From Heliocybe sulcata (taxonomy: Eukaryota; Basidiomycota; Agaricomycetes; Gloeophyllales; Gloeophyllaceae), in contig ML213508.1 in assembly GCA_004369045.1 (NCBI GenBank), positions 110,330-174,329 on the forward strand: a DNA stretch of 64,000 nucleotides, read 5' to 3'. Shown here one piece after another: positions 16,477 to 53,187 of the stretch. The position numbers were made by a program, and so were the translations under genes. The notes under the pieces were generated by a model. The model was not told where the DNA came from. It ran no database searches and worked only from the letters and a program-made list of their open reading frames with translations. Every line of letters begins with the position of its first letter. The stretch's first letter is position 1.

Positions 16477-19142
16477 ATGAAGTCCCCTTCTCTTGCTCCT
16501 TCTGAAATCGCTGCCTCTGTGCCTCCGGATACGCCTCCACTGTCCCCTGTTCTTCTGAACGATGATGTGGTCTCCAACGCGTCCCATGGTCCGTCACACC
16601 CTACGACACCCGACCCCGTGGTTACTGCTCCCGATGCCACTTCCGCCAATCCTCCTACAACACCGCCTGACAAATCGCCCCCGGCACACGAATGGAATAC
16701 ACCCTACTCAAATCTTAATGAACGTCCGTCGGTTGCCTGGCAACACGCGTCGCAGTCTGGCGAGACCGGCACGCGGCGGCGCGAGGTCGGCCATGAAACC
16801 ACCCGCAAAACACTGGCAACAGTCGCAATAGACGACTTCTTTACGCTATGCTTTCCATTGCAGCAGGACGAGGGTGTCATATCCGATGCATACGAGAACG
16901 CTCCCGCCCAGGCAAAGCAAGATGTCTCGACGTTGTTGGATGCGGTTCCAACGGGAGAGGGTGTGGAGAAAGAGATGTATAAGCCTCTTGTACGTTATGG
17001 TCGTCTCAATTTATGCGCGAAAATGACTGATACACTATATCCAGATGAAAGCTATCGCTACTATTTTCGAAACCCTGTGGCCTGCGCAATGCGCCCTGCA
17101 CCTCAAAGACACGAGCTCCGACCGGGGCGGCAGCCCTGACCTCACCTTCTTCGCCAACAACACAAACAACAAGACGGACAAGTGGGAGCAGGGCTTGGCA
17201 TTTATTGAAGTAAAGCCGCAAGATAGACAAGACCCGTTCTACGACGACGAGCGAAGCCCGCGGGAGGAATTGCATATGTACTTCAGGCAGATGCAGGTGT
17301 GGAATCAGATCCAGGACTATGCCACTCGAGCGTACGGCGCCCGCTCTCGCTGTTTCATGGTTGCTATCGGCATATTCGGCCAATATGCCCGCTTCTTTCG
17401 CTGGGACCGGTCCCTCGTCACGGTATCCCGCGGCTTCAACTACAAGGAGGAGCCGGAGCTCCTGTGGCAGTTCATTGCAGCCCTTGGTGCGCCTGGTTAC
17501 GACGGCAGTGGGTTGGACCCGACCGTCGCTGACTACGTCGAGGTGCAGCGACTGGCAGTCCCTGGGTTAGAGGAGAAGTATGCAAAGGCCAGGGCGAAAC
17601 GCCTCCTCAGCTTAGAGGCGTCGGAGCTCTCGGACGCTGAGTTGCGCAAGCAGAGTAGCGTTATCACAGTCCCGTCTTCCTCAGACGGTAAAGAGGAGAA
17701 GTATATATCCGTCGGGCCACCGCTCTTTGTGTCCGGCACGATCCTAGGACGAGGGACGCGCGCCTGGCTTGCGGTCCCTGTCCCAGGAACAGTCGAGAAC
17801 CCCGCGAGGAGCAATGAGGACCACTTTGTGATCATCAAAGACTCGTGGCGAGATGAGTCTCGTGCGCCCGAAGGCGACGTCTACAGAGCCATCTATGGCA
17901 ATGCCGATAGTGTGTTCGGTATAGCCAGGATTCGCAGCTCTGTGGATCTGTACAACGCAGAGGGTAATCCTGTTGAGCGCGACTTTATGCACACCACGAT
18001 CGCCGCATGGGTCTTGAGGTACTTCAACCGCAGGTTCTGTCGTCGCGTCCATCATAGATGCGTCTTAGATTCAGTCGGCATCAATCTCGGTCGATTCGAG
18101 ACTACTCGCGAGCTCATGGAAGCAATTCGCGATGCTGTCATAGGTTAGCTCCATCGGATCTGTGTAGCGCGACAATACTGATGTTGCCGGCAGGTCATAG
18201 AAGCATGTCCGAGAAGGATATACTTCATCGTGATATCAGCGCTTATAACGTCATGATAAGTGCCTATCCGAGCTGCGAGGGCAACGCAAGAGGATTCTTG
18301 ATTGACATGGACTATGCCACTGTACTCGGGAAGGCAGGGAGCGAAGACGAGCTCCGGGAGATTACAGTGAGACATAGTCATACTTATGATGCCGTCCACT
18401 GATATCCTCTGTCCAGGGCACTACTGCATTCTTATCCATTGCACGCGACCCCGACCGTCCAGATACAGGGCCACACAGGATCTGGCATGACCTGGAATCG
18501 TTCTTCTGGGTCGCTCTCTACATCGTCGTGCGCCATGCTAATATGGGCGGCACGGTGACAGTCGAGAAAGTGATTTCTTTATTCGACAAGGGCCAGACAG
18601 AATTTCGGAGGGGCTTCATTGCCACCACTATTCAGCGTATCCGCGTGAATGGCCATCCAGCCCTTGGCAAATGCCTCCAAAGGCTCGCAGAACTCGTGGC
18701 CTCCCATTACTCTGCTGAAGAGCTCCCACCACAATTGAGGGAGGAGGCATGCGAACGTTTGCCGGACGTGTATCGTTTGCTGAGGGACCATCAGCCCTTC
18801 ATCGATACTATAGATGCAGCGCTCGGTTCTCACGAATGGCCAGAACCTGACTTTGAGGCCAAGCCTTTCACGATCGCGCATGCGGAGACAAGGAAACGTA
18901 TGGAAGACGCGATCAAGTTGATGGAGGAGAGTGTCAGGAGCACCAGGGACGGTCAAACCAAGCGCAAGCGGGAAGTCGAACTTGACGCCGAGTCTGACGG
19001 AACAGCCGCGACGAAGCGCGTTCGCCAAGAGGATGAAGGAACACAGGTCAAAGAGAAGGAGCCTAGGAGCGTGTTCGCATGTGTTCCAAAGGATGTTATA
19101 AAGCGTAGGGCTGCGAGTAAGGAACGTCCTCCTGCGGCTTGA
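16477..19142 (+). CDS. FunK1 protein kinase with PD-(D/E)XK-like N-terminal half, copy B
   Basis: Four exons, 16477-16989, 17045-18143, 18194-18366 and 18417-19142, giving 836 residues. Residues 1-115 are Ser/Pro-rich. A central domain carries SPDLTFF (Asp203), FIEVK (Glu226, Lys228) and QIQDY (Gln259, Tyr263), the spacing of a PD-(D/E)XK nuclease fold with a QxxxY helix, followed by the conserved RWD segment. The kinase domain has a glycine loop LGRGTR near 405-410, VIIK (Lys436), HRD at 549-551 and DMD at 575-577 in place of DFG, then a HDLESFFWVALYIVVRH C-lobe typical of FunK1. The tail carries a bipartite nuclear signal (KRKREVE then TKRVRQE). FunK1 kinases are fungal-specific and expanded in mushroom-forming fungi; substrates are unknown. 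Intact and probably functional. Confidence 0.9.
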
Positions 19143-19278
19143 GATGGCACCCCTCGATGCCCTACTGCGTGTCTTTATCCACGCGAATGTATAGTCTGGG
19201 TTTTTATATATAGAATATAACGTGTTTGTCATTCCTTAGCGAGAGGAGCCTAAGCTCTCTCACCGTCGACAATGATCA

Positions 19279-19509
19279 CTAACAGCTACCAGACTCGATG
19301 TAGGCGCATAAGACACTAGGAGCAGTGAGCAACTGTCCCGTCAAAACGCGTAGGAGGAGCGCCAGCTCCCCGTAAACGCGTTGCATGCTCCCATAAACTG
19401 CGCCGCACAGATCACTCCACGAGGAGGACTCAAGGCACATCTCTCTGCGGGTTAGTAGGCACCTGAGCGCAGCGGCGAGCCTACCAAAGAGCACAAGGTT
19501 TTTACGCAC
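19279..19509 (-). pseudogene. Relic of amino-acid permease exon 7
   Basis: Minus-strand sequence around 19330-19470 resembles part of the large exon 7 of the two permease genes nearby: ATCTGTGCGGCGCAGTTTAT is close to GATTTGTGCGGCGCAGTTTAT of the copy at 30270, and a GCGTTTACGG...TTATGCGC run follows in the same order. No other exon is recognisable. It sits between the 3' ends of FunK1 copy B and permease 1. Confidence 0.6.
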
Positions 19510-19903
19510 ATTGCGAATATTTCATCGCAGCTTTCATATTACTGCCGTCCAGTCTCGAGCTCTCCATCCCATGTAAGTATCTGCAAGATAGAATACATCT
19601 ATCACCACATATGGAATGTTGACAGTGCGCATAACCCTGCAAGAACGGTGAGAGTCGAATTCAACCTAGGCAAACGCAACATCAGTACAGCTCGTGTCGC
19701 GCTCCGATAGACGTAGTTTCAGTATGAATGTGAAATATCTACTTTTGGACAGCACAGCAAGCTATCTCCAGCCATCACAGAACGAAGAAACAGTCGTGGC
19801 CTGCTATATCCATCGTAAGCATAAGCGCCACAAGCTTCAAAGACTAGAGAGAATATCTTGCCCAACCTGTTCCGGCCGTCAACGCGTCACATCCCCACTA
19901 CTC

Positions 19904-21966
19904 CTACATCGCTGTCTCAGGCTTACCCCCGTCTCCCTCCTCCTCCTCTACCGTCCTTACAGGTCCTCTGAACGTTCTCCTGCCGGAGGTGATCCACGTC
20001 AGTCCGACGAGCAGTATCACCGCTGCAATAGCAAGCACAGCATAGTTCATGTTGAGCGATGTTACAGGGTAAGCTGTAGGCAAAATGAAAAGGGCGCAGG
20101 TAAAGACCGTAAACTGCATCCAGTGCCACATCAGTTTGAGTGTGTTCAATCTGTATATCCAAGGTGCAGAAGGGACTCACGAGAGCGCTGGCAACATTGA
20201 TGGGCCAGGAGTACCGACCTAGGGAAAACGGCCCTCTTTCGGGTAGCCTATTACAATGCTCAGACAAACTAGCTGCACCATAGCAAATTACCGCACGCAC
20301 GAGTCCGGCCAGAGACATCGAATCAGAATAGGCTGCAAGTAACTGAGCATGGTGGCTACAGTCGCAGATGACAAGATAGCGCTGAACTACAAGTCCCACA
20401 ATGAGTACCGTTCATAATAAGCAGGCGGACCACGCACAGCAACCACAGACCCAATATAGGCACACGAGATGATACAACCGACAAAGACCGACACCCATAT
20501 GCCGACGTACGGCGCCTGATTCCGATTAAGCGCCATGAACCATCCCCGCGCGGGCATGGCATTATCCCTCGCAAGCGCATAAAACAACCGAGAGCTCGCA
20601 GTAAACGCCATCACAATGGCCGTAAACTGCGCCACACAGATGACCACCAGGCACATAATCGTGAGCCTCCTACCCACCGCGTCGTAATAAAGCTGTGCTA
20701 TGGGGATGGCGTAGGACGTGGTCTGGATGGATGAGATGCTCTGGACGGAGAAAAGCAAAGCGAGCATGTACACCAGACCGATGAACCAGGAGCCGACAAT
20801 AGAAAAGACAACGGCGAGCGGGGCGAGGAGCTCGGCGCGCTTGGCTTCTTCGGCGACTTGGGCAGCAGTTTCACAGCCTGCGAGGGTGTAAACAGCTTGT
20901 AGGAAGCCGAGTAGAACGACAAAGCCGCGGTTGGACCAGCCTGTGAAGCTGCGACAAGTTATTAGGAGAGATCGATTGAGAGATAGGGGGCTGTGTACTT
21001 CTGGTAGTCCGTGAAAACGAATGCTGCAGAGTTCTATACGCACAGTCAAGAACGTGAAGACAGCAGAATGAAGAGACGCACCTTAACGGGAGCTTTCACG
21101 AGCAGTGTGATAACGAGCACGAACGTCCCGCCAAGTGTCCACCACACATTAAAGGCGCTCATCCTGCCAATGGCCTTTGTACCGACGGTATTTATTATGC
21201 CTGAAAGAATATTTGCACCCCAGGCAATGGCGACAATCTCAACTCGAGTGAGAGTACGGCCATGACCGACTTCTGCGAGAGATGCAAGGAAGAGTGCGAC
21301 ACTTGGGGCAGGCTGGTTATCTCGTTCGCGGAGCATTGGAGAGGCAGATATACCTCAGGTTTCCAGACGTTCCGACAAAGACCATAGCTATTGCATAAAC
21401 CCAGCCAGTGCAATCTGTAGAAAGATGATCGCAGTAAAATCGGTACATTTATTTTAGGATGTTTGCTGCTTACATCCTAGAACAGGAATATCCGGTTTCA
21501 TCTTACAAACCCAAAAGTATAACCCTCCCATAGTCGGACTGTCTTACGCAGTTAATACGAGTGACAAAGGGCGAGTTATGAAGAACACTCACTATGCGCT
21601 GCATATTTCAGCGAGGCACAGGGCGATAAGAAGCATGAAAATACTGCATATCTACTTGGACTGTTAGCGATCTACCACCAGCGAACATGTCCCGTCACTC
21701 ACATTCCATCCCCAGAACAGTCCCAGCGGTCCTCCAGAGAACAGCCCCGTCTGGAACGCGCTGCTCATACCTGTCAATATCCCAATGGCGCAGAACGATA
21801 TCCCCAGAACGCCGAAGAGCGACATCTCTCGCCTGAACTCGGCCTTGTACCCGAGTTCATGCAGGCGCTTGTCCGAGTCTGCAAGTCGCACATCGGTGAC
21901 TACTATAGAGTCCATTGCGCTCTTCTGTACGCTCTTGATGTTGCCCTGCTCGTACTTCTCAGCCAT
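19904..21966 (-). CDS. APC-superfamily amino-acid permease (GABA/choline permease-like), copy 1
   Basis: Ten exons on the minus strand: 21966-21703, 21651-21593, 21538-21474, 21414-21354, 21301-21082, 21033-20999, 20948-20438, 20386-20301, 20247-20181 and 20113-19904, giving 525 residues. The hydrophilic N-terminus ends in LHELGYKAEFRREMSLFGVLGISFCAIGILTG, the first membrane helix region of fungal GABA/choline-type permeases. GGPLGLFWGWN, NWSNRGF-type loops, CETAAQVAEEA and ARDNAMPARGW are family landmarks, and about 12 hydrophobic segments are visible. The protein would be a plasma-membrane or vacuolar H+/amino-acid or polyamine carrier; substrate not determinable. Exon sizes match copy 2 except exon 1, which is one codon longer. 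Confidence 0.88.
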
Positions 21967-24900
21967 GGTGTCGTAGAACAGCCAGGGGATGGCAGCTATC
22001 GTCCAACGGGAAGACGCCAAAAACTTGCTTTTGTACAGGAGACTTCAGGATAACGTTTGCACGGGAGAACATCCTGTCTTTCGGAGGCATTGATGGCAAT
22101 ACTGTACTGGGCACGGCCGGGTGTGCCACATCAACCACCTTAACCGCATCTGCTCTGACTGCGATAAGGCAGGCAATATTTCCTCGTACCCTCACGAACG
22201 TAGGGCCAGCGGTCTGGTGGACGCGCGCTGACGTGAGCAATTGCGAGAACTGCTGGAAGATCCTAAATCAGCTCACTTTGCCACCGCTCCGTTATATAGG
22301 AAGCTAACAGCAATGTTGACAGACACCCGTGACTGCGTCATGCGTTGACCCATCACGCAACGACTGCTAGCACTAAGTCCAAGCTACGCCGATCCGCCGG
22401 TTTTGCACCGCTCTTGTGGCACTTCCTGTGCAAAGCGCGTGGCCCTATCCCACTGCTTGAGACGAAGGTCGACGTTGGCGTCGTGCGCGCCCGGGCTCCA
22501 TTTCCGGGGGTTGGCTTTGATATCGGAATATCCCGGCTGTAATCATGTCCTGATAGGCCCATTGGACTCCGTCCCGGCAGAACCGGACCTATGACCGGTC
22601 TCCTCACCTTCACTGTGGCCGCGTGGATCACCCTGCTCTAGTATGGGTTCATTCGCGCGCATACTTTATGTCCAAGTAGTTGACAGATGGTAAGTAGGCT
22701 ATACGTTGTTTTCATTCACTGCTGAGTGAATCAGCTGCTTAGGATACTCGAATCTTGGCGTGTTCAACGTATCGCAGGTTTTGCAATGTTCCTCTATGCT
22801 GACACATGTACAGTTCTAGAAAACTATCATAAAGCACCATCCTTTATAGTGTGAATTCTGTCCACCCAGTAGTCTCGGGACTATTACCCTCTCCGACTAT
22901 CCAAACTGACGAAACATAGCTTGGAAATCTCAGACGACCTCTGACTAGGATTACCAATGGACTGCATCGCTCACCTGCCGACTCGCATCTTCTCCACTTG
23001 ATTCAATCAGCATCCTGGGTCCGCACCAGGGTTTTCCCTGGATGTTGCCACTGGTCCCTGCGGCTGTAACTGCTCAGCTTATCGCAGATTTCAGTGATCA
23101 CGACATTTGTGCTCTGGCGGTCGCCGGCAATGTATAATTTACTGGTGATCAGTGCGTAGTGCCCATATCTGCAGGACCAATAACTAACCGAAGCACTTGT
23201 TCAGCGTCGTATGCTACCGTGACTCTGTCATTATTATCATACTCTCTCATTATTATAACAGATAACCCCTCACGAACAACGCTATCGCTGCAGTTATGAT
23301 GCCTTCTTGCGCGCTTGTAACAGTGCGTGCACATGCTTTCCCTATATTTGTATCATGAATAGGCCGGCGCTCATCCCTCTTGGTAAATACTCCATGCCTA
23401 TTCGCTCTATCACATCTGAAAAATAACCAAGTCATATACGCTCGGAATTGTCGCAATTCGAATATCCCAGCACCATAACATACATTCCATCATCTCACCG
23501 CAGCGAAGCCATGCGGAACCGAACCTCTTTTCCGGTACACGAGCGCCTACAAGCCCATGAGAAGCGGGGCCAAATCAGAACCCAGGAACCGCTCGCATAT
23601 ACGCATCAACTTTTGTTCCTTCCGACCTTCTGGCGTTAAAATCCGCCATCAACCGAGGCGCCCGCGTTTGAGGTAGGACCCACAATACAGGTGTCAAATA
23701 TTCTCCTTATCGGAAGCCTTTACTCAACCAGTTGTCAGTCCACTCTCTCGCTCCCTGAACGGTCTGCCAAAATAATATCCGTTGAAAACCCGAAGGAGCT
23801 CTCGTATACGTATGCCGTAGTCCGCACCCATCCTAACAAAACGCCCACGAGCGCCTATACCGTCGATCTACCCATCAGACGCTCAAACACGCGTCAACCC
23901 CAGCACGCCTCGAAAGAGGTTGCAGTGAGCTGCGAAGAATAGTTGCACCCTGCGCTTACTCTCCATCGAGAAGTATGCAGTATGGCGGCGGAAGTGCAAG
24001 CTAATTCCCATCTGCGACAGCAGCGCAGCACCCTCGTCCATCAAGCACGCACCAGCCACTCGAGAAGCACAGTTGCCGACCTTGCATACCCCGTCGTCTC
24101 CAGGAGCAAAAGGACAAGCTCTTCTTCGTAATACTAGGCAGGTAGAGTCCAACAGACGCTGACTGGTGGAGGACTTCATGGCATGGGCGCCTAGGAATCA
24201 GAAGAAACGTGCTCTCGCCTACGCCCACCGAATTGCGTCGCTCCCAATCGGACGCCCTAGGCGATTTTCTCGGTAAATCTAGGGTGCGGGCAGCGTATGA
24301 CTGTGGCCGGCCTGGTCAAGATCGGAGAAAAACATGCACTCGCCTCACTCTCAGCGGCGGACGCTGTGGGTCCCAGCTGTACGCATAAATTTTCTGATTT
24401 GGCCTCGCGTACGCTGCTGGTAAGAGATCACCAGGAAATCAGATACTTACACGCTCGTATCGATGGGCGGAGCCGAGACTCGGTAGAGGACTAAGCGCCC
24501 GCGTCGCTGCCGTCGACAGCCGACGTTGTGGGCCCCAGGTGTACCTTGATCGGGGAGGAGTGGTTGCAATTCGGACTCAAGGCTACGGAGATGTGCTAGG
24601 CGAGACTGATGTTGCGCCTAGTGCTGCCTGCAGGGAGAAAATTGAGCAATAGCGACGGGAAATACGTGGTTCGGATCACCCGGCCTGTGCTGTACTAGAC
24701 GCCACTCACGAAGCTTGCTAGCCCGCCTAACCATCTGGGACTTGACCTACGGCATGCGCGTACGTTGTGGGTCCTAGCTTGGACTGGCGGATCGATTTTA
24801 GCGAGCGGGTTGAACTAGTGCGACATCACCAAGTGCTCGTGTTGTTGAGACGCCTAGGGTGGCGTGTTGTCCCGAGTTCCGCGATGTCAGGCGGGCTGAT

Positions 24901-26100: not shown

Positions 26101-26103
26101 GCG

Positions 26104-31022: not shown

Positions 31023-31419
31023 AGGTGTGAGACCTGAGGTGGTCGCAGCAGGCTGGACATTATACTGTCTGCTTGTCTGTGAGGGTGGCACTCATTCTTA
31101 CGATGGACATGGCAGGTTGAGTGTGCTTCGAGGATTGCTTCCTGACCTGCACCTCATTCGGTTAGGGCTGAGAGGTACTAATCTGAAACTGAGCCTCTTC
31201 TCACGTTACTGAAACAATGACGTCGGAACGTCAAAGGAGCTTGCAGGTTTGCAAACTTGCGCGCACTGTTGTCAATCCTGTACGTGGTGATAAATGTATC
31301 CTATATTTATGGATGCATATACGGGATGCAGGCTGTACCTTACAGAGATAGCTGTAGCTGATGAGCTATTCGCAATGTGCGTGAAAACTCACCTCGTCGT
31401 CCAGGTGATAGCGGGCCGT

Positions 31420-31560
31420 GCCTCGAGTCTTCCGCGCGTATTGATCTGTGCGGCGCAGTTCTGGGAGCAGGCATGGCCTTGGCGTTCGCGCGGCCTTTAT
31501 GCATTTTGCCGCGATAACTGCTCCTCGCTGCTTAGTGTGCCATATGCGGAGGCTCGTCGG
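31420..31560 (+). pseudogene. Second relic of permease exon 7
   Basis: ATTGATCTGTGCGGCGCAGTTC and the following GCGCGGCCTTTATGCATTTTGCC-like run align by eye with part of permease exon 7 (protein LICAAQF then YAFCRDN against VICAAQF then YALARDN). It lies between the 3' end of permease 2 and the promoter of FunK1 copy C, the mirror of the relic beside copy B. Confidence 0.55.
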
Positions 31561-31604
31561 AGAGGTGGACCCACTCATACTTACTTGCGGTATACACATT
31601 CTCC

Positions 31605-31882: not shown

Positions 31883-34508
31883 ATGAAGTCCCCGTCTCTT
31901 TCTCCTTCTGAAATCGCGACATCTCCGCCGCCGGAAACGCCCCGTGAACCTTCTGTCCTGTCTGACTATGACGGCACATTGACGTCACTCGACGTGCCCT
32001 CACGCACATCGACGCCCGCCTCCGCCTCTTCTGCTCCCGACTGGCCTGCTGTGGATCGTCCGGCCACGCCTGTGGGCAACAAAACTGAACCGCGCGACTG
32101 GATCACGCCGCACGCAAAACCGTCTGATCGTCCATCCATTTCACGCCAACATGGGTCACAGGCGAGCAACACGGAGACCTTGCGCAAAGAAGTTGGTGAA
32201 GAGATGACAAGACAGTTAGTGGCTACGGTTGCGGTATCTGATTTTTTTGGATACGCTTTCCCCAAGCAACGTCACGATGCTGCTGTATCCAACGCGTATC
32301 AGAACGCGTCTGACCAGGCGAAAGCGAAGGTTGCGACCCTATTGAACCGGGTCCCTACAGGAGAGGGCAGGGAGAAGCATATGTATGAACCACTGGTACG
32401 TGATCTACATTTCTGATGTGTAGTCATTTTTGATCTGTATATTGTATAGATTAACGCCATCAACGCCATCTGTGATGTTCTATGGCCTACTGAGACGCCC
32501 ATCGTTGTCCAAGATTCTCATAGTTCTCACAAAGGCAGCCCAGATCTCTCATTCTTCTCCAAGAACGACTCAAATATAACGGACAAGTGGCACTGCGGCC
32601 TGGGCTTCGTGGAGGTCAAAGCTGTCGACAAAGAGGACCCATTTCACGCCGACGAGCGGGACCCTACAAAACCTTTATCCATGAAGCTGAGTCAGCTCAA
32701 CACATGGAACCAAATCCAAGACTACGCGACTCGAGCATTTCGAAGTCGTGCGCGCTGTTCGCTGGTTGCTATTGGCGTATTCGGGAACTATGCTCGGTTG
32801 TTCCGCTGGGACCACTCTCTTGCGATGGTGTCCAGAGGATTCGAGTACAAGAAGAACTCCGAGCTGCTCTGGCAGTTTATTGCTTACTTTGGCGCACCCG
32901 GCTACCACGGTGCTGGCTTGGACCCGACTGTCGGTGATTATGTCGAGCTCGGGCGGTTGGCAGTCCCTGGCCTGGAACAGAAGTATGTGCGGGCAAGGGA
33001 CAAGAATCTGCTGAGTCCAACTGTCTCCGTAATGGGCGACGACGATCTGCGGAAGCAAAGTAGCGTCATCACCATGCCGTCCTCCTCCACCGATGACGAA
33101 GAGAAGTACATAACCATTGGTCCCCCCCTCTTCTCGTCCAACGCTGTGCTAGGACGAGGTACGCGTACTTGGCTCGCCGTTCCTGTGCCCGGTACTGTTG
33201 ATCATCCGGAGAGAAGCAACGACGACCACTTTGTGATTATCAAGGACTCGTGGAGAGATGTATCCCGCGCATGCGAAGGCGACATCTACAAGGAGATTTA
33301 CGGCGACGCAGGTCATGCCTACGGCATAGCGAGGATACGCTCTGATACCGACCTCTACGATCCCGATCGCGACGATAGTGACGGATCAAATGACGTGCAC
33401 CATACAATCGCCGAGTGGGTGTCTGAGTTTCTAGGGCGCAGGTTTCGTCGCCGCATTCATCACCGAACGATTATGGACTCGGTCGGCATCGATCTCGGTC
33501 GCTTCAAGAGTACTCGAGATTTACTGGAAGGAATTCGCGATGCAGTCAAAGGTCTGGGATTTAGCTATGTCTGCAGTAATAGTCCTGATTGCGTGTTCGT
33601 GCACAGGCCACAGACATATGTCTGACAAGGGCATACTTCACAGAGATATCAGCGCCTACAACGTGATGTTAAGCGCCTACCCCGAGAAGGAGAACGGCGC
33701 AAAGGGGTTCTTAATTGACATGGACTACGCCACCGTGCTGGGTAGTAAGGGCAGCGACGACGATTTGCTTGAGATTACGGTATGCAGACCCTCATCACTT
33801 TCAGAACCATGGCTGACCTCCGTCGTCTAGGGAACGACGGCGTTCCTGTCCATAGCACGCATCGAAGACGACGAAGAGGTTGAGCCTCACAGGAAGTGGA
33901 ATGATCTCGAATCATTCTTTTGGGTCACGGCCTACATCGTCGTTCGTCATGCGCAGACGACGTACACGGTTGAGAAGATTGTAGACCTTTTTGATCGTGG
34001 CGACGCTGCGAGACGGAAAGAGTTTATCATAACCAAAGTCCATCGTATCAAGTTCCCTCCCCACCCTCCGCTGATGCGATGCCTTCGAAACCTCGCTTAC
34101 CTCGTCGCGTCCCACTACAGGGGAGAATTCTACCACCCGGACCATTTGGACACCCTCGCTAAGGATCCTAACATGTTCCTGTTGAACGATCACCAGGCGT
34201 TCCTCGACGTTATAGACAAGGAGCTGAAAGCTGATGACTGGCCGGATCCCGACATTGAGGCCGCGCCCTTCGTCATGGCCGAACCAGATAGTCGCAAGGC
34301 GCTGATGAGCATGATGCAGGAGAGTGTCGAGAGCACGAGGAGGAGCCAGAGTCAGAGCAAGCGAAAGCGAGACGCTGAAACCGAGGCTTCAGAGGATGCC
34401 GAAGAAGAGAATGCGACGAAGCGCGCTCGCCAGGAGGCATCAAAGACGAATGATTTCTCCACCCTTCCAGCAGACTTTGCTGGCGGGCATTACATGCGCA
34501 ACGCTTGA
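31883..34508 (+). CDS. FunK1 protein kinase with PD-(D/E)XK-like N-terminal half, copy C
   Basis: Four exons, 31883-32395, 32450-33551, 33607-33779 and 33831-34508, giving 821 residues. Exons 1 and 3 have the same lengths as in copy B. It keeps SPDLSFF, GFVEVK and QIQDY in the nuclease-like region, the LFRWDHS segment, LGRGTRTWLA and VIIK in the kinase N-lobe, ILHRDISAYNVM, GFLIDMDYA, and the DLESFFWVTAYIVVRH C-lobe. The tail has KRKRDAE then TKRARQE as a bipartite nuclear signal. The N-terminal 110 residues are Ser/Thr/Pro-rich and diverged from B. All motifs are intact. Its 3' end faces copy D. Confidence 0.9.
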
Positions 34509-34515
34509 GACACTG

Positions 34516-35184: not shown

Positions 35185-37714
35185 CTAATGGGTGTCACCC
35201 TCCTGGCGAGCGCGCTTCGTCGCGCATGCCTCCTCAGCCTCGGTCTCTTGGTCGGCTTTCTGCTTGCGCTTTTTTGGTCTCTCCCTGATGCTATCCGCAG
35301 TCGCCTGTAACAACTGGATCACCTCTTTCATTCTCTTCACCGTCTCCGAGTGCGCCACCATGACTGGCTTGGCCTCAAAATCAGGCTCTGGCCATTCGCC
35401 AGAACCGAGCGCTGCATTTATTGTATCGATGAAGGGTTGATGGTTCCTCAGCAAATCGAACCTGTGCGGGAATAGCTTTCGCAATTGTTCCTTCTCCTCA
35501 GGTTCATCATCGTCCAGGAGGTAATGAGAATTCACGAGCTTGGCGAGCCTTCGAAGGCATTCACCCAGCGGCGTGTGTCCAGTCACGCGGACAAGATTGG
35601 CACTGTAGGAAAGGAAGCCGCTCCGGTAAGATATATCACCCTTGTTGAATATAGAGATCATGTCCTCGACTGTCACCGTGCCGTCCATATTAGCATGGCG
35701 CACGACGATGTAGAGAGCCACCCAGAAGAACGATTCAAGGTCGTGCCAGGTCCTGTGTAGCCCTCTGTCTGGACATCTGGGGTCGCGTTCGATGGATAAG
35801 AATGCGGTGGTGCCCTTGAGAAAGAATATTAGTAGCGTGTTCCTAGGTAGGAGTGGCCCTTTACTGTAATTTCGCGGAGCTCGTCATCGCTCCCTTCACT
35901 CCCGAGTACAGTTGCACAGTCCATGTCAATCAAGAATCCCTTCGCGTTGCCCTCACTAGTCGGATAAGCACTTATCATCACGTTAGACGCGCTGATATCT
36001 CGATGGAGTATATTCCTTTGGGCCATGTTCCTGTGCCCTGCAGACGATATCAGTGCTTCTCTGTGAATGCGACATAAGTGGGCTGACCTTCGACTGCGTC
36101 ACGAATTCCTTCCATGAGCTGGCGAGTGGTCCCGAAACGGCTAAGTGTGACACCAACTGAGTCCAGAATACACCTATGATGAACGCGATGACAGAATTGA
36201 CGCCCGAAGTACTGAGCGACCCATGTAGCGATCGTGGTGTGGACAATGTCATGGCCGTCAGAATCATCCTCGGGGTCGTACAGATCGACCGAGCTGCGCA
36301 TCCTTGCTATACCGAACGCGCAATCGGCATCGCCGTAGATGGCTCGGTAGACGTCGCCTTCCGGCGCGCGGGATTCCTCTCTCCACGAATCTTTGAGAAT
36401 CACAAAGTGGTCCTCGTTGCTCCTCTCCGGGTTGTCGACAGTGCCTGGGACGGGGACCGCGAGCCAAGCGCGCGTTCCTCGTCCTAGGACCGCTCCGGAC
36501 GCAAACAGTGGTGGTCCGATGGATATATACTTCTCTTCTTTGACACCAGAGGAGGATGGGACGGTGATGACGCTACTCTGCTTGCGCAAGTCAGCATCCG
36601 AAAGTTCTGAGACCTCCAGACTGAGTAAGCGTTTCGTCCTAGCCTTTGCATACTTCTCCTCTAATCCCGGGACTGCCAGTCGCTGCACCTCGACATAGTC
36701 TGCCACAGTTGGGTCCAAGCCGCTGCCATCATAACCAGGCGTACCCAAGCCCGCGATGAACTGCCACAGGAGCTCTGGTTCCTCCTTGTACTTGAAGCCG
36801 CGGGATACCGTGACGAGAGAGCGATCCCAGCGAAAGAACCGAGCATAGTTACCGAATATACCGATGGCAACCATGAAGCAGCGAGCACGAGCACCGTACG
36901 CTCGTGTGGCATAGTCCTGGATCTGGTTCCACACCTCCATTTCCCTGAGGTGCATACGCAGTTCCTCTTTCGGGTTTCGCTCGTCGTCATAGAACGGGTC
37001 TTGTCTGTCTTGGGACTTTGCTTCAATGAATGCCAAGCCCAACTCCCACTTGTCCGACTTGTTGTCCTCATTGTTGGCGAAGAACGTCAGGTCAGGGCTG
37101 CCTCCCTGGTCTGAACTCGTGTTTTTGAGGTGCAGGATAGACTGCCCAGGCCACAGCGTATCGCAAATAGTGGTGAAAGCGTCGATCTGGGCATAGCATA
37201 TTAGCAGGCAGCGCTCATGATTTGAAGGCTCGTAGCGTACAAGAGGCTTGTACATGTCTTTCTCCACACCCTCTCCCGTTGGTATCCCATTCAACAATGT
37301 AGAAACGTATTGCTTTGCCATCGCAGGGGCTCTCTCATATGCCTCGGATATGATATCCTCATTCTCCTGTGATGGGAACGAAAGCGTAAGGAAGTCGCCT
37401 ATTGCCACTGTTGCAAGTGTTTTGCGGATGGTTTCGTTGCCAACCTCGAGCCGCCTGGTTGCAGTCTCTCCGGATTGAGACGCATGCTGGGAGGTACTGA
37501 GTGGGCGTTCTTGAAGTTCTGGGTGAGGTGTTAGATATCCTTGAGGCGGTGGCGGGGTGCTCAGCGGCGTCGTCAGCGGATCGGCGGGAGCAGTGCCAAC
37601 GGGAATCGCTGTCTTAGAGCGCGATGGACCATCCAACTCGGCAGCGACCACATTATCGTCCAGCAAGGCAGCAGATACCGCAGCAGTTTCGGACGCAGCA
37701 AGAGACGACTTCAT
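35185..37714 (-). CDS. FunK1 protein kinase with PD-(D/E)XK-like N-terminal half, copy D
   Basis: Four exons on the minus strand, 37714-37241, 37186-36088, 36037-35865 and 35814-35185, giving 791 residues. Exon 2 (1099 nt) and exon 3 (173 nt) equal those of copy B, and the protein is closest to B. It has SPDLTFF, QIQDY and RFFRWDRS, but the ExK motif reads IEAK. Kinase motifs LGRGTRAWLA, VILK, ILHRDISASNVM and GFLIDMDCA are present, with a C-lobe like B's. The tail has KKRKQK then TKRARQE. Intron 1 is 54 nt with no stop, so retention would add 18 residues in frame. The start ATG at 37714 follows the family promoter; upstream in-frame ATGs fall inside that promoter. Confidence 0.88.
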
Positions 37715-38127: not shown

Positions 38128-38997
38128 TCAAGCATCATCCTCGTCTGCGTAAACGTCGTCGAAATCGTCCGGATCTTCTTCCAGAGCGTCATGAAGGGCT
38201 GCTGTACCATCCTGGCGAGCACGCTTCACTGTACTCCCCTCTTCGCCTTCCACTTCTTGCTTTCGCTTGCCCTCGCTTCCCTTCGAGGTGCCGATGCTCC
38301 TCTGCAGCACTCTGATGGCCTCGTCCAGTGAATTCATGCTCGGAGCAGTTCCGATAATGAACTGACGCGCTTTGATATCTGGATCTGGCCAATCGTCTGC
38401 GTCCAGATGCTCTTGTACGGTCTTGAGAAACGCTTGGTGATCGTTGAGAAGATACCATTTATCTGGCTGGGACTGAAGCACCAGTGCGATTAAATCTGGG
38501 TCGAGTGTCGCTAACTTGTAGTGGGACTCGACAAGTGTCGCAAGGTTTTTCAGGCATTGAACCAAGCGGGGATGATCCTTGACCGTCGTGATACCCAGAC
38601 TTGTCTCCACAAATCTTCTCCTTTCCCCAATGTACCCACTATGAAATATGTCGACTATTCGCGTAATCGGCATGGTGCCATCAGTGTCGGTATGACGCAC
38701 GACGATATAGACTATAACCCAGAAGAATGACTCGAGGTCATTCCAGACGGCATGGGGTGCAACGATGACCTGCGGACTTTCCTTCACCCGTTCCATGGAC
38801 AGGAATGCGGTAGTTCCCTGTACGAGGTACTTAGTTGGGATATGGGAAGGTCTACCAGAGCCACTCACTGTAATTTCTCGCAACTCGTCAACGCAGGCCA
38901 CAACGCCAATAATGGCAGCATAATCCATGTCCATGGGAAAGATTTTGACTGTACGCTCAGCACTGATAATGACGTCCTTCGCGTTAATATCCCTCTA
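38128..38997 (-). pseudogene. FunK1 fragment E (C-terminal third only)
   Basis: Minus strand. It begins abruptly at 38997 inside the catalytic motif with RDINAKDVIISAE, continues through FPMDMDYA, then the last exon (GTTAFLSMERV, WNDLESFFWVIVYIVVRHTDT, the helical C-lobe, KRKQEVE then VKRARQD) to the stop at 38128. Everything upstream (N-terminus, nuclease-like region, kinase N-lobe) is missing. Directly beyond 39000 lies the leader of the FHA gene, so the break point abuts that gene. The sequence that remains is well conserved, so the truncation looks recent. Confidence 0.75.
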
Positions 38998-39180
38998 GCG
39001 GTAGGCCTACGGTGGCGCAAGGAGGAAGGAGCAGGGCCGCGACGCGTTACAAGCATGGGCGCCCGAGTCACAGCCTCACTACACGTGCCTTTCAACCGCG
39101 TCCGTGGGACTTCGCCGCGACTCTCCTCCTGCAGACGTCGCCACATTCGCGCCCTCTCACAGCTGCAAGCGCTGTACACG

Positions 39181-42100: not shown

Positions 42101-42522
42101 CGAAGGCGAAGCCGATAAGTGTCGAGGAGGACGAGCTTGATTTCATCGACCGGCCCACGTCACCTGTGGAAGCCACCAAGACTACTAAGCGTCGCGGTGC
42201 TAAGGTGAAGGACGAGGAGACGGAGGATGAGGGTAGGAAGACTGCAAAATCTACTACCACCGCAACTAGGGCCAGGAGGACCCCTGCTCGGGGACGCGCT
42301 AAGGAATCGCCAGCCGTTGTTCTGGATGAACCGGGAGAGGCGGAGGGAAGTGGGGACAAGGAGAATACCACCCCGGAAGGGAGCGGCGCGTCTGCTGAAG
42401 AGGCGCCTGCGCCTGCTAAGCGTGGTCGACCTACAAAGGCTAAGGTGAAGTCGGAAGAACCTCCGTCGGAGATTCCGAAGCCCGTGAGGGCAACGAGGGC
42501 AAGAGCTGCGAAGAGAACATAG
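39181..42522 (+). CDS. FHA-domain nuclear protein with Ki-67-like layout
   Basis: Four exons, 39181-39372, 39422-40732, 40797-41783 and 41833-42522, giving 1059 residues. Residues ~14-115 form an FHA domain (FGRDPRCDVRL, SAVHCKI, NGLLIDD), a phosphothreonine reader. The rest is low-complexity: acidic runs, many TP/SP sites, an RVQF motif at 412-415 of the PP1-binding RVxF type, four spaced copies of a TP..DGV..MF-like element around residues 630-720, and a basic Lys/Arg/Pro/Ala tail with AT-hook-like GRGR and KRGRP patches. This order (FHA, RVxF, LF-TP repeats, basic tail) resembles vertebrate Ki-67, a chromosome-surface protein. Intron 2 has a GC donor. Homology to Ki-67 beyond the FHA domain is inference. 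Confidence 0.8.
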
Positions 42523-47330: not shown

Positions 47331-47587
47331 TGTCATGCGTCGGAATTGAATATTGAAGCGCCGACCAAAGGAGCAGCACGTGACGCAAGAACGCGCGCAG
47401 CGAGTCCCACGCTCCTGGATCCGTGCCACAAGCACACGCGCCATTAAATCCTCGTGGGCACCAAACACACTGACAAGAAAACGTGTTGACAATGACTGTT
47501 TTATATCGGAGCTTTAATCCGAGTCGTGCCACCGACATAAGTACCGTGGGTCAACCTGCTTTCCTTCCTGTCTTGTCTCCCACTAAC
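47331..47587 (+). promoter_or_regulatory. Conserved FunK1 promoter, copy F
   Basis: AGCACGTGACGCAAG, GAGTCCCACGCTCC, GTGCCACAAGCACACGCGCC, GACTGTTTTATATCGGAGC and CGTGCCACCGACATAAGTAC occur in family order before the ATG at 47588. Confidence 0.7.
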
Positions 47588-50208
47588 ATGAAGTCGCCTT
47601 CGCTACCCCCAACTGAAATTGCTCCCTCGCCTCCTCCTGAAACGCCGGCAACATCCTCTGCTTCACTGTACGACGATGGAACCTCCGTCGCATCCCATGG
47701 GCTGTCGCGCCCCGTAACTCCCATCTGCCCCGATGCTGGAACCGGCGATCCTCCCGCCACACCGGCCAACAATACAACCGTACAACACGATTGGAATACT
47801 CCTCATTCTCAACTTCACGACCGCCCGTCCATCGCTCGCCAACACGCGTCGCAGAAGGGCCATCCTGAAACCTTGCGAATAGAGGCCGGTTCAGAACTCG
47901 CTCAAAAGCTAGTAGGAACGGTACCCATTAACGAGTTTCTTACCCTTGCCTTTCCGCAACAACGTCACGATGGTATCTTGTCCCGTGCATATGAGGATGC
48001 TTCGGCCCAGGCGAAGGAGGATGTTTTGGCGCTCTTGAAGGAGGTTCCCACAGGTGATGGCGTGGAGAAACTTATGTACGAGTCACTAGTACGTTGGCCA
48101 TCCCGGAGAACATAGTACTTCTTACTGACACGACCTCTACTTGAGATAAAAGCCATGACCGCCATATGCGAAGCCCTTTGGCCTGGACAGTCCAGCCTTT
48201 ACGTCAAGGACAGCAGTTCTGAATCTTCAGAGGACGGAGGCAGCCCCGACTTGACCTTCTATTCCGACAATCAGGATAATCGCACGGACGCTTGGGAATG
48301 CGGTCTAGGCTTCGTAGAAGTCAAGCCCACGGACGCGCAGGACCCATTGTACGTTGACGAGCAAGATTGCTCCAAGCCTTTGCGTATACATCTTAAACAA
48401 ATCGACGTGTGGAATCAGATCCAGGACTACGCTACGCGTGCCTACCACAGGCGCTCTCGCTGTTTCCAAGTTGCAATCGGAATCTTCGGCAACTACGCTC
48501 GGTTTTTTCGTTGGGACCACTCACTCGGAATGGTATCGAGAGCCTTCGATTACAAGAAGGAGCCCGAGTTCCTTTGGCAGTTTATTGCCGCCTTCGGATC
48601 CCCCGCCCATCATGGTCATGGGCTCGACCCGACTGTGGGAGACTATGTGGAAGTCAAGCGCCTGGCTGTACCAGATCTAAAGGAAAAGTACGTGAACGCC
48701 AGGAAGAACCGTTTACTTAGCTCGAAGGTCTCCGGACTTTCCGACGCAGACCTTCTGAGGCAGAGTAGCGTTATTACAATCCCATCCCGCTCTCGCGACA
48801 TACAAGAGAAGTATATAACGATCGGACCTCCACTCTTCGCATCTAAGGCCATCCTTGGACGTGGTACGCGTGCTTGGCTGGCTGTTCCCGTCCCAGGCAC
48901 TGTCGACAATCCAGAGAGAAGCAATGAGGACCATTTTGTAATTATCAAGGACTCCTGGAGAGAACTATCTCGAGCTAAGGAAGGCGATATATACAAGGCC
49001 ATCTACGGAGATGCGGACAAGGTGTTCGGCGTGGCAAGGATCCGATGTGATCTCGACCTCTATGACCCTGCTGTCAGCTCTGATGGGGAAAATACCATGC
49101 ACCGCACCATTGCCGAATGGATTTCTCAACAGTACGGCCGGCACTTCTCTCGTCGTATACACCATCGAAGCGTCCTGGACTCTGTTGGCATTGACCTTAG
49201 TCGCTTCGAGAGTACTCGGGAGCTGATGGAGGCTATTCGTGATGGAGTCAAAGGTGAGTTATTGCTACGCATGGTTTAACACGCACATTGACCACATTAT
49301 TCAGGTCATAGGAATATGTCGAACAACAAAGTCCTCCATAGGGACATCAGTGCGAAGAACGTGATGATTAGCGCGTACCCGGAAAAGGAGAGTATGGCCA
49401 AAGGTTTCCTAATTGACATGGATTACGCCACTGTGACCGGGGATGGGGAGTGCGAGGATGACTTGAGAGAAATCACGGTGAGATCAGTAGCTGCCTCTCT
49501 CAGAACCGTAAGGCTGAAGCTACTGCCCAGGGGACCACCGCCTTCTTGTCCATGGCACGTGTTCAAGGCACGATGAATAGCCAGATGGCCCCGCACGCCA
49601 TTTGGAATGACCTCGAGTCGTTCTTCTGGGTCACTGTCTATATTGTCGTGCGCCACACCGACACTGAGAAGACCATGCCCGCGGGCAGGATCGTCCAGAT
49701 CTTTGACTCAGGAGATGTCGACAAACGGATGCGATATGTGCGACGGGATATTGCCGCTACCAAAGTGAAAGGTCATATACCTCTCGCTCGATGCCTCCAG
49801 GCCCTTGCAAAACTCGTTGCTTCCCACTACGCCTTGGAAGACCTCGATCCGGATGTCCGGGCTGATGTCGCAGAGCGGCACGCTGGAAAATACTTCCTCT
49901 TGAAGGAACATCAAGTATTCATCGACACCGTACAGAAGGAGCTTGATTCGGAAGACTGGCCCCGGCCCGCCAATGACTTCAAGGCCCGCTCATTCGCTAT
50001 GGGGTTAGCTCCGGCTAGAACCGCGCGAGAGGAGACTATAAAGACGTTGAAGGAGAGCATTGAATCTACCAGGGAAAGTAAGCGAAAGCGAGAAGCTGAA
50101 GCTGAAGAAGAGGAGACAGCGCCGAAACGCGCTCGCCAAGAGACGGAGGCGTCCCAAGGCGCTGAAGTGCTGCCCCACGCAGGGAGCATTTTCGATATAT
50201 TGATTTAA
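47588..50208 (+). CDS. FunK1 protein kinase with PD-(D/E)XK-like N-terminal half, copy F
   Basis: Four exons, 47588-48088, 48146-49253, 49305-49477 and 49531-50208, giving 819 residues. The last two exons have the same lengths as in copy C. It carries SPDLTFY, GFVEVK, QIQDY and RFFRWDHS in the N-terminal half, then LGRGTRAWLA, VIIK, VLHRDISAKNVMIS, GFLIDMDYA and DLESFFWVTVYIVVRHTDT. The bipartite nuclear signal is KRKREAE then PKRARQE. It stands in tandem with copy G, 440 bp apart, and the two share the HTDT form of the C-lobe motif with fragment E. All motifs are intact. Confidence 0.9.
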
Positions 50209-50429
50209 GTATACCTCTGTACGACTCTGGTACTAACTCTTCAGTGTGACCGCTCTGCCTAACTTACTCACTTAATACGGATGTACACTATTTACCCCCG
50301 GCTAGGCCGTTGCGGATGAATTGCAGACATATTTATTATTCATGTCCGGCTCATGTGTAGCCTCTTCTCATCCACCGATCTAGCTTGGCATGTGTTGTCT
50401 CTCCCGTTTCCTGGAGCCCGTGCCGTAAT

Positions 50430-50650
50430 TGAAGCGCCGATTAGAAAGGGGAGCACGTGATGCAAGGACGCACGCAGTGCTACGCAGTGAGGAACACGCT
50501 CCTCGGTTTGTGCCACAAGGGCACGGGGAACTACACTGATAAAGATACGTATTGATAATGACGGTTTTATATCGGACCTTCAATCCGAGTCATGCCACCG
50601 ACTTATGTTCCGTGGGTCAAGCTACTTGCCTTCTCGTCCTCACCGCTAAT
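50430..50650 (+). promoter_or_regulatory. Conserved FunK1 promoter, copy G
   Basis: AGCACGTGATGCAAG, TTTGTGCCACAAGGGCACG, GACGGTTTTATATCGGACC, CATGCCACCGACTTATGTTC and CGTGGGTCAAG occur in family order. It is the most diverged of the promoters in front of open genes, but the TATA-like block is exact. Confidence 0.65.
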
Positions 50651-53187
50651 ATGAAGTGCTCTTCGCTGTCTCCTACTGAAATCGTCTTCTCGCCTCAATT
50701 TCAAACGTCGGCCCCGTTTTCTTCCTTATTGAACGACAGTGGCAACTCCACTGCCTCCGATGAACCGTTGCTCCATAAAATTTCCACTTTCCTCGGCGCG
50801 GCTCTCGACGTCGCTCCCGGTGACCCTCGCTCGACGCCTCCTACTGATGAAAGCGCAGAACATGTATGGAAAGCACCACACTTGAAAGTACGGGACAGCC
50901 CATCCATCACTCGCCAGTACGCATTGCAGGCCGACAATATTGACAATATGCGAACCCAAGCTCGCAACGAGATCAGTGAGGTAGTGGGAACAGTCGCCGT
51001 CCTTGATTTTCTCTCCCCAACGTTTTCTGGACAACGCCACAATGGCCTTCTATCTCGTGCGTATGAGAACGCCCATGCAAACGCGAAGAGGAATGTTTCG
51101 GCACTGTTGGATAAGGTTCCAACTGGAGCAGGCGTCGAAAAAGATATGTATAAAGCAATAGTACGTGGATGGATGCGTGTCTATATCACACTACTCATTA
51201 ACATTGACCGCTATCCAAGATGGAAGCCATAACGACTATACATAAAGCCTTGCGGTCTGGACAGTCCACAATCGTCCTCGAGGACACCAGCTCTGACTTA
51301 ACACTCTACCCTGACAACAATATGAAGGACAAATGGGAGTACGGATTAGGTTTTGTGGAGGTCAAGCCCGCAGACAAACAGAACCCGTTGCATGCTGACG
51401 AGCAAGACTGCTCGAAGCCACTGCGCGTGTATCTCAGCCAAATGCAGGTGTGGAATCAGATCCAGGATTATGCTACTCGAGCATATCGTGGTCGTTCTCG
51501 GTGTTTCTCTGTTGCCATCGGTATCTTCGGCAAGTATGCTCGGTTCTTTCGCTGGGACCAGTCCCTTGCTATGGTGGCCAGAGCTTTCGACTACAAGAAG
51601 GAGCCGGAGTTTCTCTGGAAATTCGTGGTGGCATTCGGGTCTCCCGACCACTGCGGTAACGGCTTGGATCCGACTGTAGGTGATCATCTCGAGGTCGAAC
51701 GACTGGCAGTTGCTGGCTTGGAGGAGAAGTACGCCAAGGCTAGGGCGAAGCGCCTGCTCAGCTTAGAAGTGTCAGCGCTTGCGGATGATGATTTGCGCAA
51801 GCAGAGCAGCGTAATCACAATCCCATCACCGCGTAACAGTGAACAGGCGAAGTATATGTCTATCGGGCCGCCACTCTTTGTGTCTCGCGCTGTCTGGGGC
51901 GAGGGATGCGACCACTTCGTTATTATCAAGGAGTCGGGGCGCGACGAGACGCGCGCACCAGAAGGCCTCATCTACAAAGCCATTCATGGTGACACCGACC
52001 ATGTGTTCGGTGTAGCGAGAATACGGAGTGATGTGGACTTATATGACTCTGCGTTCTCTTCTGATGGGCGAAACGCGGTACACCGTACGATTGGGAAATG
52101 GGCCTTCAGGTACTTCGGGCGGAAGTTCTGTAGCCGTACTCATCACCGATGCGTTCTGGACTCGGTCGGTATCGACCTGACTAGCGAGTTGATGGAAGCT
52201 ATTCGTGACGGGGTCATGGGTGAGTGCTGAAGCGAACGTCTATACAACAACGCTAACCTATTCTACAGGGCACAGGAATATGACGAGTAGGAGCGCCCTC
52301 CATAGGGATATCAGCGCGAGCAATGTGGTGATCAGTGCTTACTCCGAAATGGAGGACGCAGCCAAAGGCTTCTTGATTGACATGGACTATGCTGCCGTGA
52401 CAGGCCAAGGTGCTTGCGACGATGAGTTGCGAGACATTACAGTGAGCTCCTCGGCGTGCATTTCCGCTGAAGATGCGAGACTGAGTTAATGGTATAGGGA
52501 ACAACAGCTTTTCTATCAATGGCACGCGCCAAAAGTATCCTCAAGAAACAAATCGCGCCTCACGCGACTTGGAACGATCTTGAGTCACTTTTCTGGGTCA
52601 CGCTCTACATTGTCGTTCGCCACACGGATACCGGGGGCACAATGCCCGTGGAGCGAATAGTCGAGATCTTCGACCGGGGGCTCATTGGTCAGAGAAAGCA
52701 ATATGTGCAAGAGGGCATTGCCGATATCGAGGTGCGGGCCCACGCCCCGCTCGTCAGATGCCTCCAAAACCTGGCGCAACTCGTCGCATCACACTACCTC
52801 TGGGATCATCTTAAACCTGCGCAAAAGGCTTGGTTTGATGAACATTTCCCAGGGGAGCACTCCCTCCTGAAGGAGCACCAAACGTTTCTGGACGCTATTG
52901 AGAAAGAGCTGAAGGAGGTGGACTGGCCAGAGCCGGATTTCGAGGCACAAGTGGTCTCTTTTCCTGCTGCTCCCCGGGATGTGCAGGATGAGGCGATAAA
53001 TTCCCTGCCACGGAGTGAACACAGTACCAGAGACAGCCAGTCTCAAAGTAAGCGGAAGACGGAAGATGAGCAGCAGACCGGAACTAAGCGTGTTCGCCGC
53101 GAAGGAGAGGCTCAGCAGGAGCCCCAAGGACGAGACGTGTCCTACGACCCTTTCGCCGACGATGAAGATCTTAGGAATGCATCCTAA
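50651..53187 (+). CDS. FunK1-like predicted pseudokinase, copy G
   Basis: Four exons, 50651-51160, 51220-52219, 52269-52441 and 52498-53187, giving 790 residues, open throughout. The nuclease-like region keeps SSDLTLY, GFVEVK and QIQDY (the Pro before the Asp is changed). In the kinase N-lobe the segment that in other copies runs from LGRGTR to ERSNE is absent: the sequence passes from SRAVWGEG straight to CDHFVIIK, so the glycine-rich loop and first strands are missing while Lys, HRD (LHRDISASNVV) and DMD remain. A few residues before ELMEAIRDG are also gone. Frame and splice sites are kept despite both losses. The tail has KRKTEDE then TKRVRRE. It may be a pseudokinase or a gene early in decay. 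Confidence 0.8.

What the first reader, a model, noticed from the sequence alone, without database searches (positions are those of the whole stretch)
16477..53187. FunK1 paralogs look like PD-(D/E)XK nuclease-like/kinase fusions
In copies B, C, D, F and G the half before the kinase domain has (P/S)DL-(T/S), then 20-25 residues later an (I/V)E(V/A)K, then about 30 residues on QIQDY, followed by hydrophobic strands and RWD. An acidic residue, ExK and QxxxY in that order is the signature of PD-(D/E)XK nuclease folds. Pairing such a fold with a kinase is known in principle from Crinkler-type proteins, where restriction-endonuclease-like and kinase domains are combined. Here it would be a host-encoded nuclear family with two enzymatic modules. 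Copy D has EAK and copy G lacks the Pro, so activity may vary.
Basis: partly seen in the sequence, partly recalled or inferred. Interest (0 to 1): 0.8.

Follow-up and report, generated by a model that had tools for sequence, protein, structure and literature searches.

The report
FunK1 kinases with nuclease-like front domain
A cluster of duplicated fungus-specific kinase genes carries, in front of the kinase, a conserved domain whose key residues are laid out like those of DNA-cutting enzymes, but whether it has that fold or cuts anything could not be shown here.

Summary
Five complete FunK1 genes (B, C, D, F, G; four exons each) encode D203, E226, K228, Q259 and Y263 (copy B numbering), invariant in 5 of 5, plus an invariant Glu (E164) where PD-(D/E)XK enzymes carry motif I. 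The domain lies upstream of a separate kinase and looks as constrained as the kinase. The layout appears to belong to Pfam's whole FunK1 model (PF17667): a FunK1-like string typed from recall, scoring 500 bits against it, places ExK at profile positions 31-33. The fold is not shown. Two AlphaFold jobs were unusable (pLDDT 42 and 40), three fold searches found nothing significant, and the only sequence link to a known PD-(D/E)XK family is VRR_NUC, below cut-off, in 2 of 5 copies (best E 0.0025 and 0.16, after trimming); 1 of 10 shuffles hit an unrelated family at 0.0064, and a phage VRR-Nuc model gave nothing above shuffles. Best reading: FunK1 proteins are REase-like/kinase fusions, analogous to REase-kinase Crinklers; about 55% likely for the fold, lower for catalysis. 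Copy G looks half-decayed; fragments A and E lack the domain.

The parts
16477..19142 (+). FunK1 copy B, exons 16477-16989, 17045-18143, 18194-18366, 18417-19142 (836 aa)
   Evidence: gene model; PF17667 181.3 bits, cut-off 24.1
17045..17521 (+). copy B residues 172-330, PD-(D/E)XK-like segment (D203 17138-17140, E226 17207-17209, K228 17213-17215, Q259 17306-17308, Y263 17318-17320)
16966..16968 (+). copy B E164, candidate motif I Glu, near the end of exon 1
   Evidence: invariant in 5 of 5
17732..18551 (+). copy B kinase domain, residues about 401-640 (GRGTR loop, VIIK, HRDISxxN, LIDMD), spread over exons 2-4; limits are mine
31883..34508 (+). FunK1 copy C, exons 31883-32395, 32450-33551, 33607-33779, 33831-34508 (821 aa)
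   Evidence: exon 2 PF17667 71.2 bits
32450..32926 (+). copy C PD-(D/E)XK-like segment (SPDL, EVK, QIQDY)
35185..37714 (-). FunK1 copy D, exons 37714-37241, 37186-36088, 36037-35865, 35814-35185 (791 aa)
   Evidence: exon 2 PF17667 67.9 bits
36710..37186 (-). copy D PD-(D/E)XK-like segment (SPDL, EAK, QIQDY)
47588..50208 (+). FunK1 copy F, exons 47588-48088, 48146-49253, 49305-49477, 49531-50208 (819 aa)
   Evidence: exon 2 PF17667 70.4 bits
48146..48631 (+). copy F PD-(D/E)XK-like segment (SPDL, EVK, QIQDY)
50651..53187 (+). FunK1 copy G, exons 50651-51160, 51220-52219, 52269-52441, 52498-53187 (790 aa); lacks GGSP and the kinase glycine-loop stretch, probably decaying
   Evidence: exon 2 PF17667 22.4 bits, below the 24.1 cut-off
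51220..51672 (+). copy G PD-(D/E)XK-like segment (SDL, EVK, QIQDY)
38128..38994 (-). copy E, kinase C-lobe fragment without the front domain
   Evidence: PF17667 29.2 bits at profile 311-387; tblastn
14105..15077 (-). copy A, diverged kinase fragment without the front domain
   Evidence: PF17667 23.8 bits for 14105-14821, below cut-off; tblastn

Best explanation
FunK1 proteins are two-domain proteins: a PD-(D/E)XK (restriction-endonuclease-like) domain of about 170 residues in front of an atypical protein kinase, with a low-complexity N-terminus and a basic, probably nuclear-targeting C-terminus. The front domain would bind a metal through D203, E226 and K228 (with E164 and Q259 assisting) and bind, perhaps cleave, nucleic acid in the nucleus; the kinase in the same chain would switch or target it, as proposed for REase-kinase Crinklers. 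Shown: residues, gene structure, constraint on both domains, a separate kinase. Shown only through a recalled string: family-wide presence. Inferred: fold, metal binding, nuclear location, nucleic acid as substrate, regulation by the kinase.
For: D, ExK, QxxxY and a preceding Glu in canonical order, invariant in 5 of 5 copies. The Asp sits in (K/G)GSPDL(T/S)F in 4 of 5 copies and the ExK in a hydrophobic stretch, GL(A/G)F(I/V)E(V/A)K, in 5 of 5. A rough Chou-Fasman profile gives helix at about 163-172, strands at 205-207 (just after D203) and 222-226 (ending at E226), and three strands from about 275; the first AlphaFold model, of low confidence, shows helix, strand, an ExK strand, a helix with QxxxY and three strands, but no strand at the Asp. 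The only Pfam hit for the trimmed copy B domain is VRR_NUC, a PD-(D/E)XK family (E 0.0025), over B residues 175-230, which contain D203, E226 and K228; copy D hits it at 0.16. A FunK1-like string typed from recall (500 bits to PF17667) puts ExK at profile 31-33 and, by inference from where the extended string starts to align, an Asp at about 3; masking E or K costs 2.7 and 2.5 bits, masking the Asp costs 1.7 and moves the start. MAFFT aligns the copies' E and K with that string's ELK. In B-D, the one pair with dS below 1, dN/dS is 0.16 in the domain, 0.19 in the kinase, 0.35 in the N-tail, 0.66 in the C-terminus. Glycine loop and VIIK lie downstream in B, C, D and F, so the front part is not the kinase N-lobe.
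Against: No confident fold: pLDDT 41.8 and 39.8, and the second model has neither a strand at ExK nor the strands after QxxxY. No fold match at E <= 0.001 in three searches. No PD-(D/E)XK protein among the hits at E <= 10 of two PDB sequence searches. VRR_NUC never reaches its cut-off (18.3 of 23.8 bits); for copy B its E-value depends on how I cut the query (0.03 whole protein, 0.024 exon 2, 0.0079 first 200 residues of exon 2, 0.0025 trimmed domain), and it is absent for C, F, G and a consensus. 3 of 10 shuffles of the B domain also hit some Pfam family at E <= 10, best 0.0064. A VRR-Nuc model from 47 phage sequences scores the copies no better than 6-39% of 2000 shuffles, and other stretches of B, C, D and F score as high; the best hhalign alignment covered only FIEVK. 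In PF17667 the ExK residues cost less when masked than kinase catalytic residues (4.4-5.9 bits) or some other residues of the domain (GFD 4.4, FDR 4.6, a strand Val 3.9), and the motif IV position only 0.9, so many members may lack a full active site. In the MAFFT alignment the string's Asp falls two columns from D203, and its motif IV residue is Asp, not Gln.
Confidence: 0.5

Rival explanations
1. The domain has the REase-like fold but is not a nuclease in most FunK1 proteins: it is a nucleic-acid or protein-binding regulatory module of the kinase, kept for binding.
For: Motif IV and the Asp are only weakly favoured in PF17667 (0.9 and 1.7 bits when masked) while non-catalytic positions (GFD, FDR) cost 4.4-4.6 (string typed from recall). 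Copy D has EAK and copy G lost GGSP without losing the reading frame.
Against: D, E and K are retained in 5 of 5 copies although the domain is only 58-82% identical between them.
Confidence: 0.3
2. Chance motif: the front domain is an unrelated alpha/beta domain specific to FunK1, and the D, ExK, QxxxY order is fortuitous.
For: The loose motif order occurs in 6.7-13.2% of whole-protein shuffles and the strict one in 1.1-2.2%; no significant fold or profile match.
Against: Rough strand prediction around the residues, the extra invariant Glu, the weak VRR_NUC hits, the E/K positions recovered in a distant FunK1-like string.
Confidence: 0.3
3. The front segment is an elaboration of the kinase N-lobe rather than an independent domain.
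For: Pfam treats the stretch from the QxxxY region through the kinase as one model, and FunK1 has been described as resembling mainly the C-lobe of typical kinases (PMC3203195, passages).
Against: Glycine loop (GRGTR), VIIK lysine, HRDISxxN and LIDMD all lie downstream of residue 400 in B, C, D and F, so the kinase has its own N-lobe.
Confidence: 0.07

Closest known systems
FunK1 fungal-specific kinases (Pfam PF17667 Pkinase_fungal)
   Same: B matches PF17667 at 181 bits over residues 255-632; lineage-specific expansion and unknown function as reported for FunK1 (PMC3203195, passages; PMC3591445, passages; PMC6001611, passages).
   Different: In the passages seen, no paper describes a nuclease-like domain; the window copies carry a longer stretch between ExK and QxxxY than the recalled FunK1-like string.
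REase-kinase Crinkler (CRN) proteins
   Same: REase-superfamily domain coupled to a protein kinase, said to be about one-sixth of CR C-termini, with the kinase thought to regulate the REase (PMC5289972, passages, citing Zhang et al. 2016, which is not held).
   Different: Crinkler N-terminal domain PF20147 (accession from PMC9815663, passages) not found in copy B at E <= 1; CRN are effectors, these are ordinary multi-exon genes with no secretion signal visible by eye (no signal-peptide program was run).
VRR-Nuc (PF08774)
   Same: Order of Asp and ExK; the GSPDL and FIEVK strings resemble phage VRR-Nuc strands.
   Different: Below cut-off; 23 residues from D to E in copy B against 14-15 in the phage VRR-Nuc sequences looked at; no better than shuffles with a phage-derived model.
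NERD nuclease / S/T/Y kinase fusions of bacterial DndF proteins
   Same: PD-(D/E)XK-type domain and protein kinase in one chain, in a conflict setting (PMC10853773, passages).
   Different: Prokaryotic, fused to a P-loop core; no homology was tested.

Membership tests
FunK1 / PF17667 | match to PF17667 above 24.1 bits | tested here: met
   B full length 181.3 bits; exon 2 alone above cut-off in B, C, D, F and below in G (22.4)
FunK1 / PF17667 | kinase catalytic residues HRD, N, DxD | tested here: met
   HRDISxxN and LIDMD in 5 of 5 complete copies
PD-(D/E)XK superfamily | motif II Asp and motif III (D/E)xK in order | tested here: met
   D203, E226, K228 invariant in 5 of 5
[quoted passage not shown]
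   Chou-Fasman compatible for helix 1 and the strands, mixed for helix 2; AlphaFold models of pLDDT 42 and 40 disagree
PD-(D/E)XK superfamily | significant profile match to a member family | tested here: not met
   VRR_NUC 18.3 bits in B and 12.5 in D against cut-off 23.8, none in C, F, G; phage VRR model no better than shuffles
PD-(D/E)XK superfamily | REase-like fold with residues clustered | tested here: inconclusive
   no coordinates of the models were available to measure distances
PD-(D/E)XK superfamily | metal-dependent nuclease activity | not testable with these tools
   bench work
Crinkler (CRN) | N-terminal Crinkler/Ubl domain PF20147 | tested here: not met
   no such hit for full-length B at E <= 1; the other four copies were not scanned full length

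The most novel reading that the evidence does not exclude
The whole FunK1 family, the large fungus-specific kinase family of unknown function, consists of nuclear REase-kinase fusions: self-encoded, kinase-controlled nucleases related in plan to REase-kinase Crinklers, expanded by duplication as parts of an intracellular conflict or genome-defence system rather than as developmental signalling kinases.
Probability: 0.25. Interest if true: 0.8.

Novelty: new variant of a known kind. Interest (0 to 1): 0.5.

Why it matters
FunK1 kinases are expanded in the mushroom Coprinopsis cinerea and several other fungi, and the papers seen report no established function (PMC3203195, PMC3591445, PMC6001611; passages). 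If their front half is a nuclease-type domain, the guess that they are developmental signalling kinases would give way to a testable one: DNA- or RNA-directed enzymes under kinase control. I found no mention of this in print, within these limits: no held paper has FunK1 together with Crinkler or with AlphaFold; the two with FunK1 and nuclease were seen only as listings and are genome surveys by title; of 17 papers since 2017 with FunK1 or PF17667, 16 were listed. Zhang et al. 2016, the most likely place for it, is not held.

Tried and rejected
Relatives: scans of viral contigs with A1 and A3 and of genome contigs with A1 and A3 found none; the collections hold no fungal genomes as far as their descriptions say, and the window's genome is not held. 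A kinase-motif scan of viral contigs gave 4 stretches; 3 of these 4 records matched PF17667 at E <= 1, one over cut-off, as did 11 of 14 control prokaryote genomes (2 over cut-off), so this model's kinase part is unspecific. The reading frames at two of the three matches looked, by eye, like ordinary protein kinases; the third was not read. So no deep alignment could be made, which is probably why AlphaFold failed. NCBIfam gave 0 hits for 5 segments, PADLOC 0 for 3, PHROGs only E >= 0.039. TSNR_N hit copy F at E 0.1-0.2, read as noise. The idea that these domains are VRR-Nuc proper was rejected.
Full report
What is there. The window is fungal DNA, probably of a mushroom-forming basidiomycete (inference; no organism was identified). 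Between 16477 and 53187 lie five complete FunK1 genes and a fragment (E); another fragment (A) lies outside, at 14105-15077. Each complete gene has four exons and introns of 49-59 nt with GT..AG ends; the first intron of every copy starts GTACGY. B matches Pfam PF17667 at 181 bits; exon 2 alone is above cut-off in B, C, D and F and just below it in G.

In B the residues are D203, E226, K228, Q259 and Y263, all invariant in 5 of 5 copies, and the local features (copy D EAK, copy G without the Pro) are as described. I add E164 in xEKxMY, invariant in 5 of 5, at the position of motif I of PD-(D/E)XK enzymes (motif layout from PMC1913061, passages). Shuffles show that the motif order alone is not rare: 6.7-13.2% loose, 1.1-2.2% strict, 2000 shuffles per protein. 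The copies are 58-82% identical in residues 172-330 and 65 of these 159 positions are invariant, so invariance of a handful of residues adds only a little.

It is a separate domain. The kinase has its own glycine loop (GRGTR; missing in G), VIIK, HRDISxxN and LIDMD downstream of residue 400. NG86 dN/dS is 0.06-0.16 in residues 172-330 (7 of 10 pairs with a defined dS) and 0.10-0.19 in the kinase (5 of 10), against 0.15-0.41 in the N-tail (9 of 10) and 0.21-0.66 in the C-terminus (6 of 10); region limits are mine, and dS is above 1 or undefined in every domain pair but B-D, so most of these values are rough. B-D alone gives 0.16, 0.19, 0.35 and 0.66. Both halves look constrained. Every complete copy carries two basic clusters near its C-terminus, for example KRKR and KRAR, compatible with nuclear import but untested.

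Family-wide, not local. PF17667 matches B from residue 255 on, profile position 43. In it GELK falls on positions 30-33 and an Asp, by inference, on about 3. Masking single residues cost: Asp 1.7 bits (with a shifted start), G 1.6, E 2.7, L 2.4, K 2.5, motif IV Asp 0.9, Y 2.3, W 2.1; other residues of the domain from about 0 to 4.6 (Val 3.9, GFD 4.4, FDR 4.6); four kinase residues 4.4-5.9. So the ExK strand is part of the family model and moderately conserved; it is not the most conserved element. In a MAFFT alignment the copies' E226 and K228 pair with the string's ELK, but its Asp falls two columns from D203. This rests on a recalled string and should be repeated on real sequences.

Is it a PD-(D/E)XK fold? 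For: VRR_NUC is the only Pfam hit of the trimmed B domain (E 0.0025, 18.3 bits, cut-off 23.8) and hits D in an overlapping stretch (E 0.16), but none of C, F, G or the consensus. The E-value for B was 0.03, 0.024 and 0.0079 with longer queries. Control: 3 of 10 shuffles of the B domain hit some family at E <= 10, best 0.0064, none VRR_NUC. A VRR-Nuc profile from phages (47 distinct sequences of 80 loci, seed from phage Sfi21) matched the copies no better than 119 to 789 of 2000 shuffles, and other stretches of B, C, D and F scored as high; its sub-threshold alignments did pair KGSPDLSFF of C and FIEVK of B with the catalytic strands, but those of D and G did not. PDB sequence searches found no PD-(D/E)XK protein among hits at E <= 10. 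AlphaFold with the five window copies gave pLDDT 41.8 and 39.8 and fold searches found nothing at E <= 0.001. A crude Chou-Fasman profile puts strands just after the Asp and up to the Glu of ExK, after a first helix, and three strands from about 275, but reads the QxxxY stretch as mixed. On balance I hold the fold somewhat more likely than not (about 0.55), mostly on the anatomy; activity is less likely still.

Mechanism. If the fold is right, the closest working model is the REase-kinase Crinkler, where the REase is thought to act on nucleic acid and the kinase to regulate it (PMC5289972, passages), and bacterial NERD-kinase fusions (PMC10853773, passages). Membership in Crinklers is not claimed: copy B has no PF20147 hit at E <= 1. 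For FunK1 itself the passages seen report expansions in pathogens and mushrooms and no established function.

Copies. B and D share a 76% identical stretch in opposite orientation (16271-19036 against 37919-35195), and next to it an amino-acid permease gene is duplicated in the same way (19800-22053 against 31116-28839, 77%), so an inverted block duplication probably made part of the cluster. G has lost GGSP and the glycine-loop stretch and is probably decaying; A and E keep only kinase sequence.

Noticed in passing
16271-22053 and 28839-37919: Inverted duplication of a FunK1 gene plus a neighbouring amino-acid permease gene (76-77% identity), with FunK1 copy C lying inside one arm.
   Followed up: partly
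about 16237-16476, 31643-31882, 37919-37715 (minus), 47352-47587, 50428-50650: The stretch upstream of the start codons is conserved between copies (B against C 84% over 299 bp that include about 60 coding bases), with CACGTG in 4 of 5 copies and, in B, C, F and G, an upstream ATG (MTVLYR or MTILYR) that is in frame with the main start in F and G, opens a short separate frame in B and C, and is absent in D.
   Followed up: partly
50651-53187: Copy G has lost the kinase glycine loop and part of the Asp motif but keeps an open reading frame, so it may be a pseudokinase in transition.
   Followed up: partly
38731-42522: Long open frames on the plus strand, the first with an FHA domain match (E 7.4e-6), lie directly beside FunK1 fragment E on the other strand.
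   Followed up: no
11493-12038 (minus): Part of a canonical protein kinase (Pkinase E 1.2e-19), resembling ATG1 (recalled).
   Followed up: no
53362-54207 (minus): A 2OG-Fe(II) oxygenase gene (E 2e-9) next to copy G.
   Followed up: no
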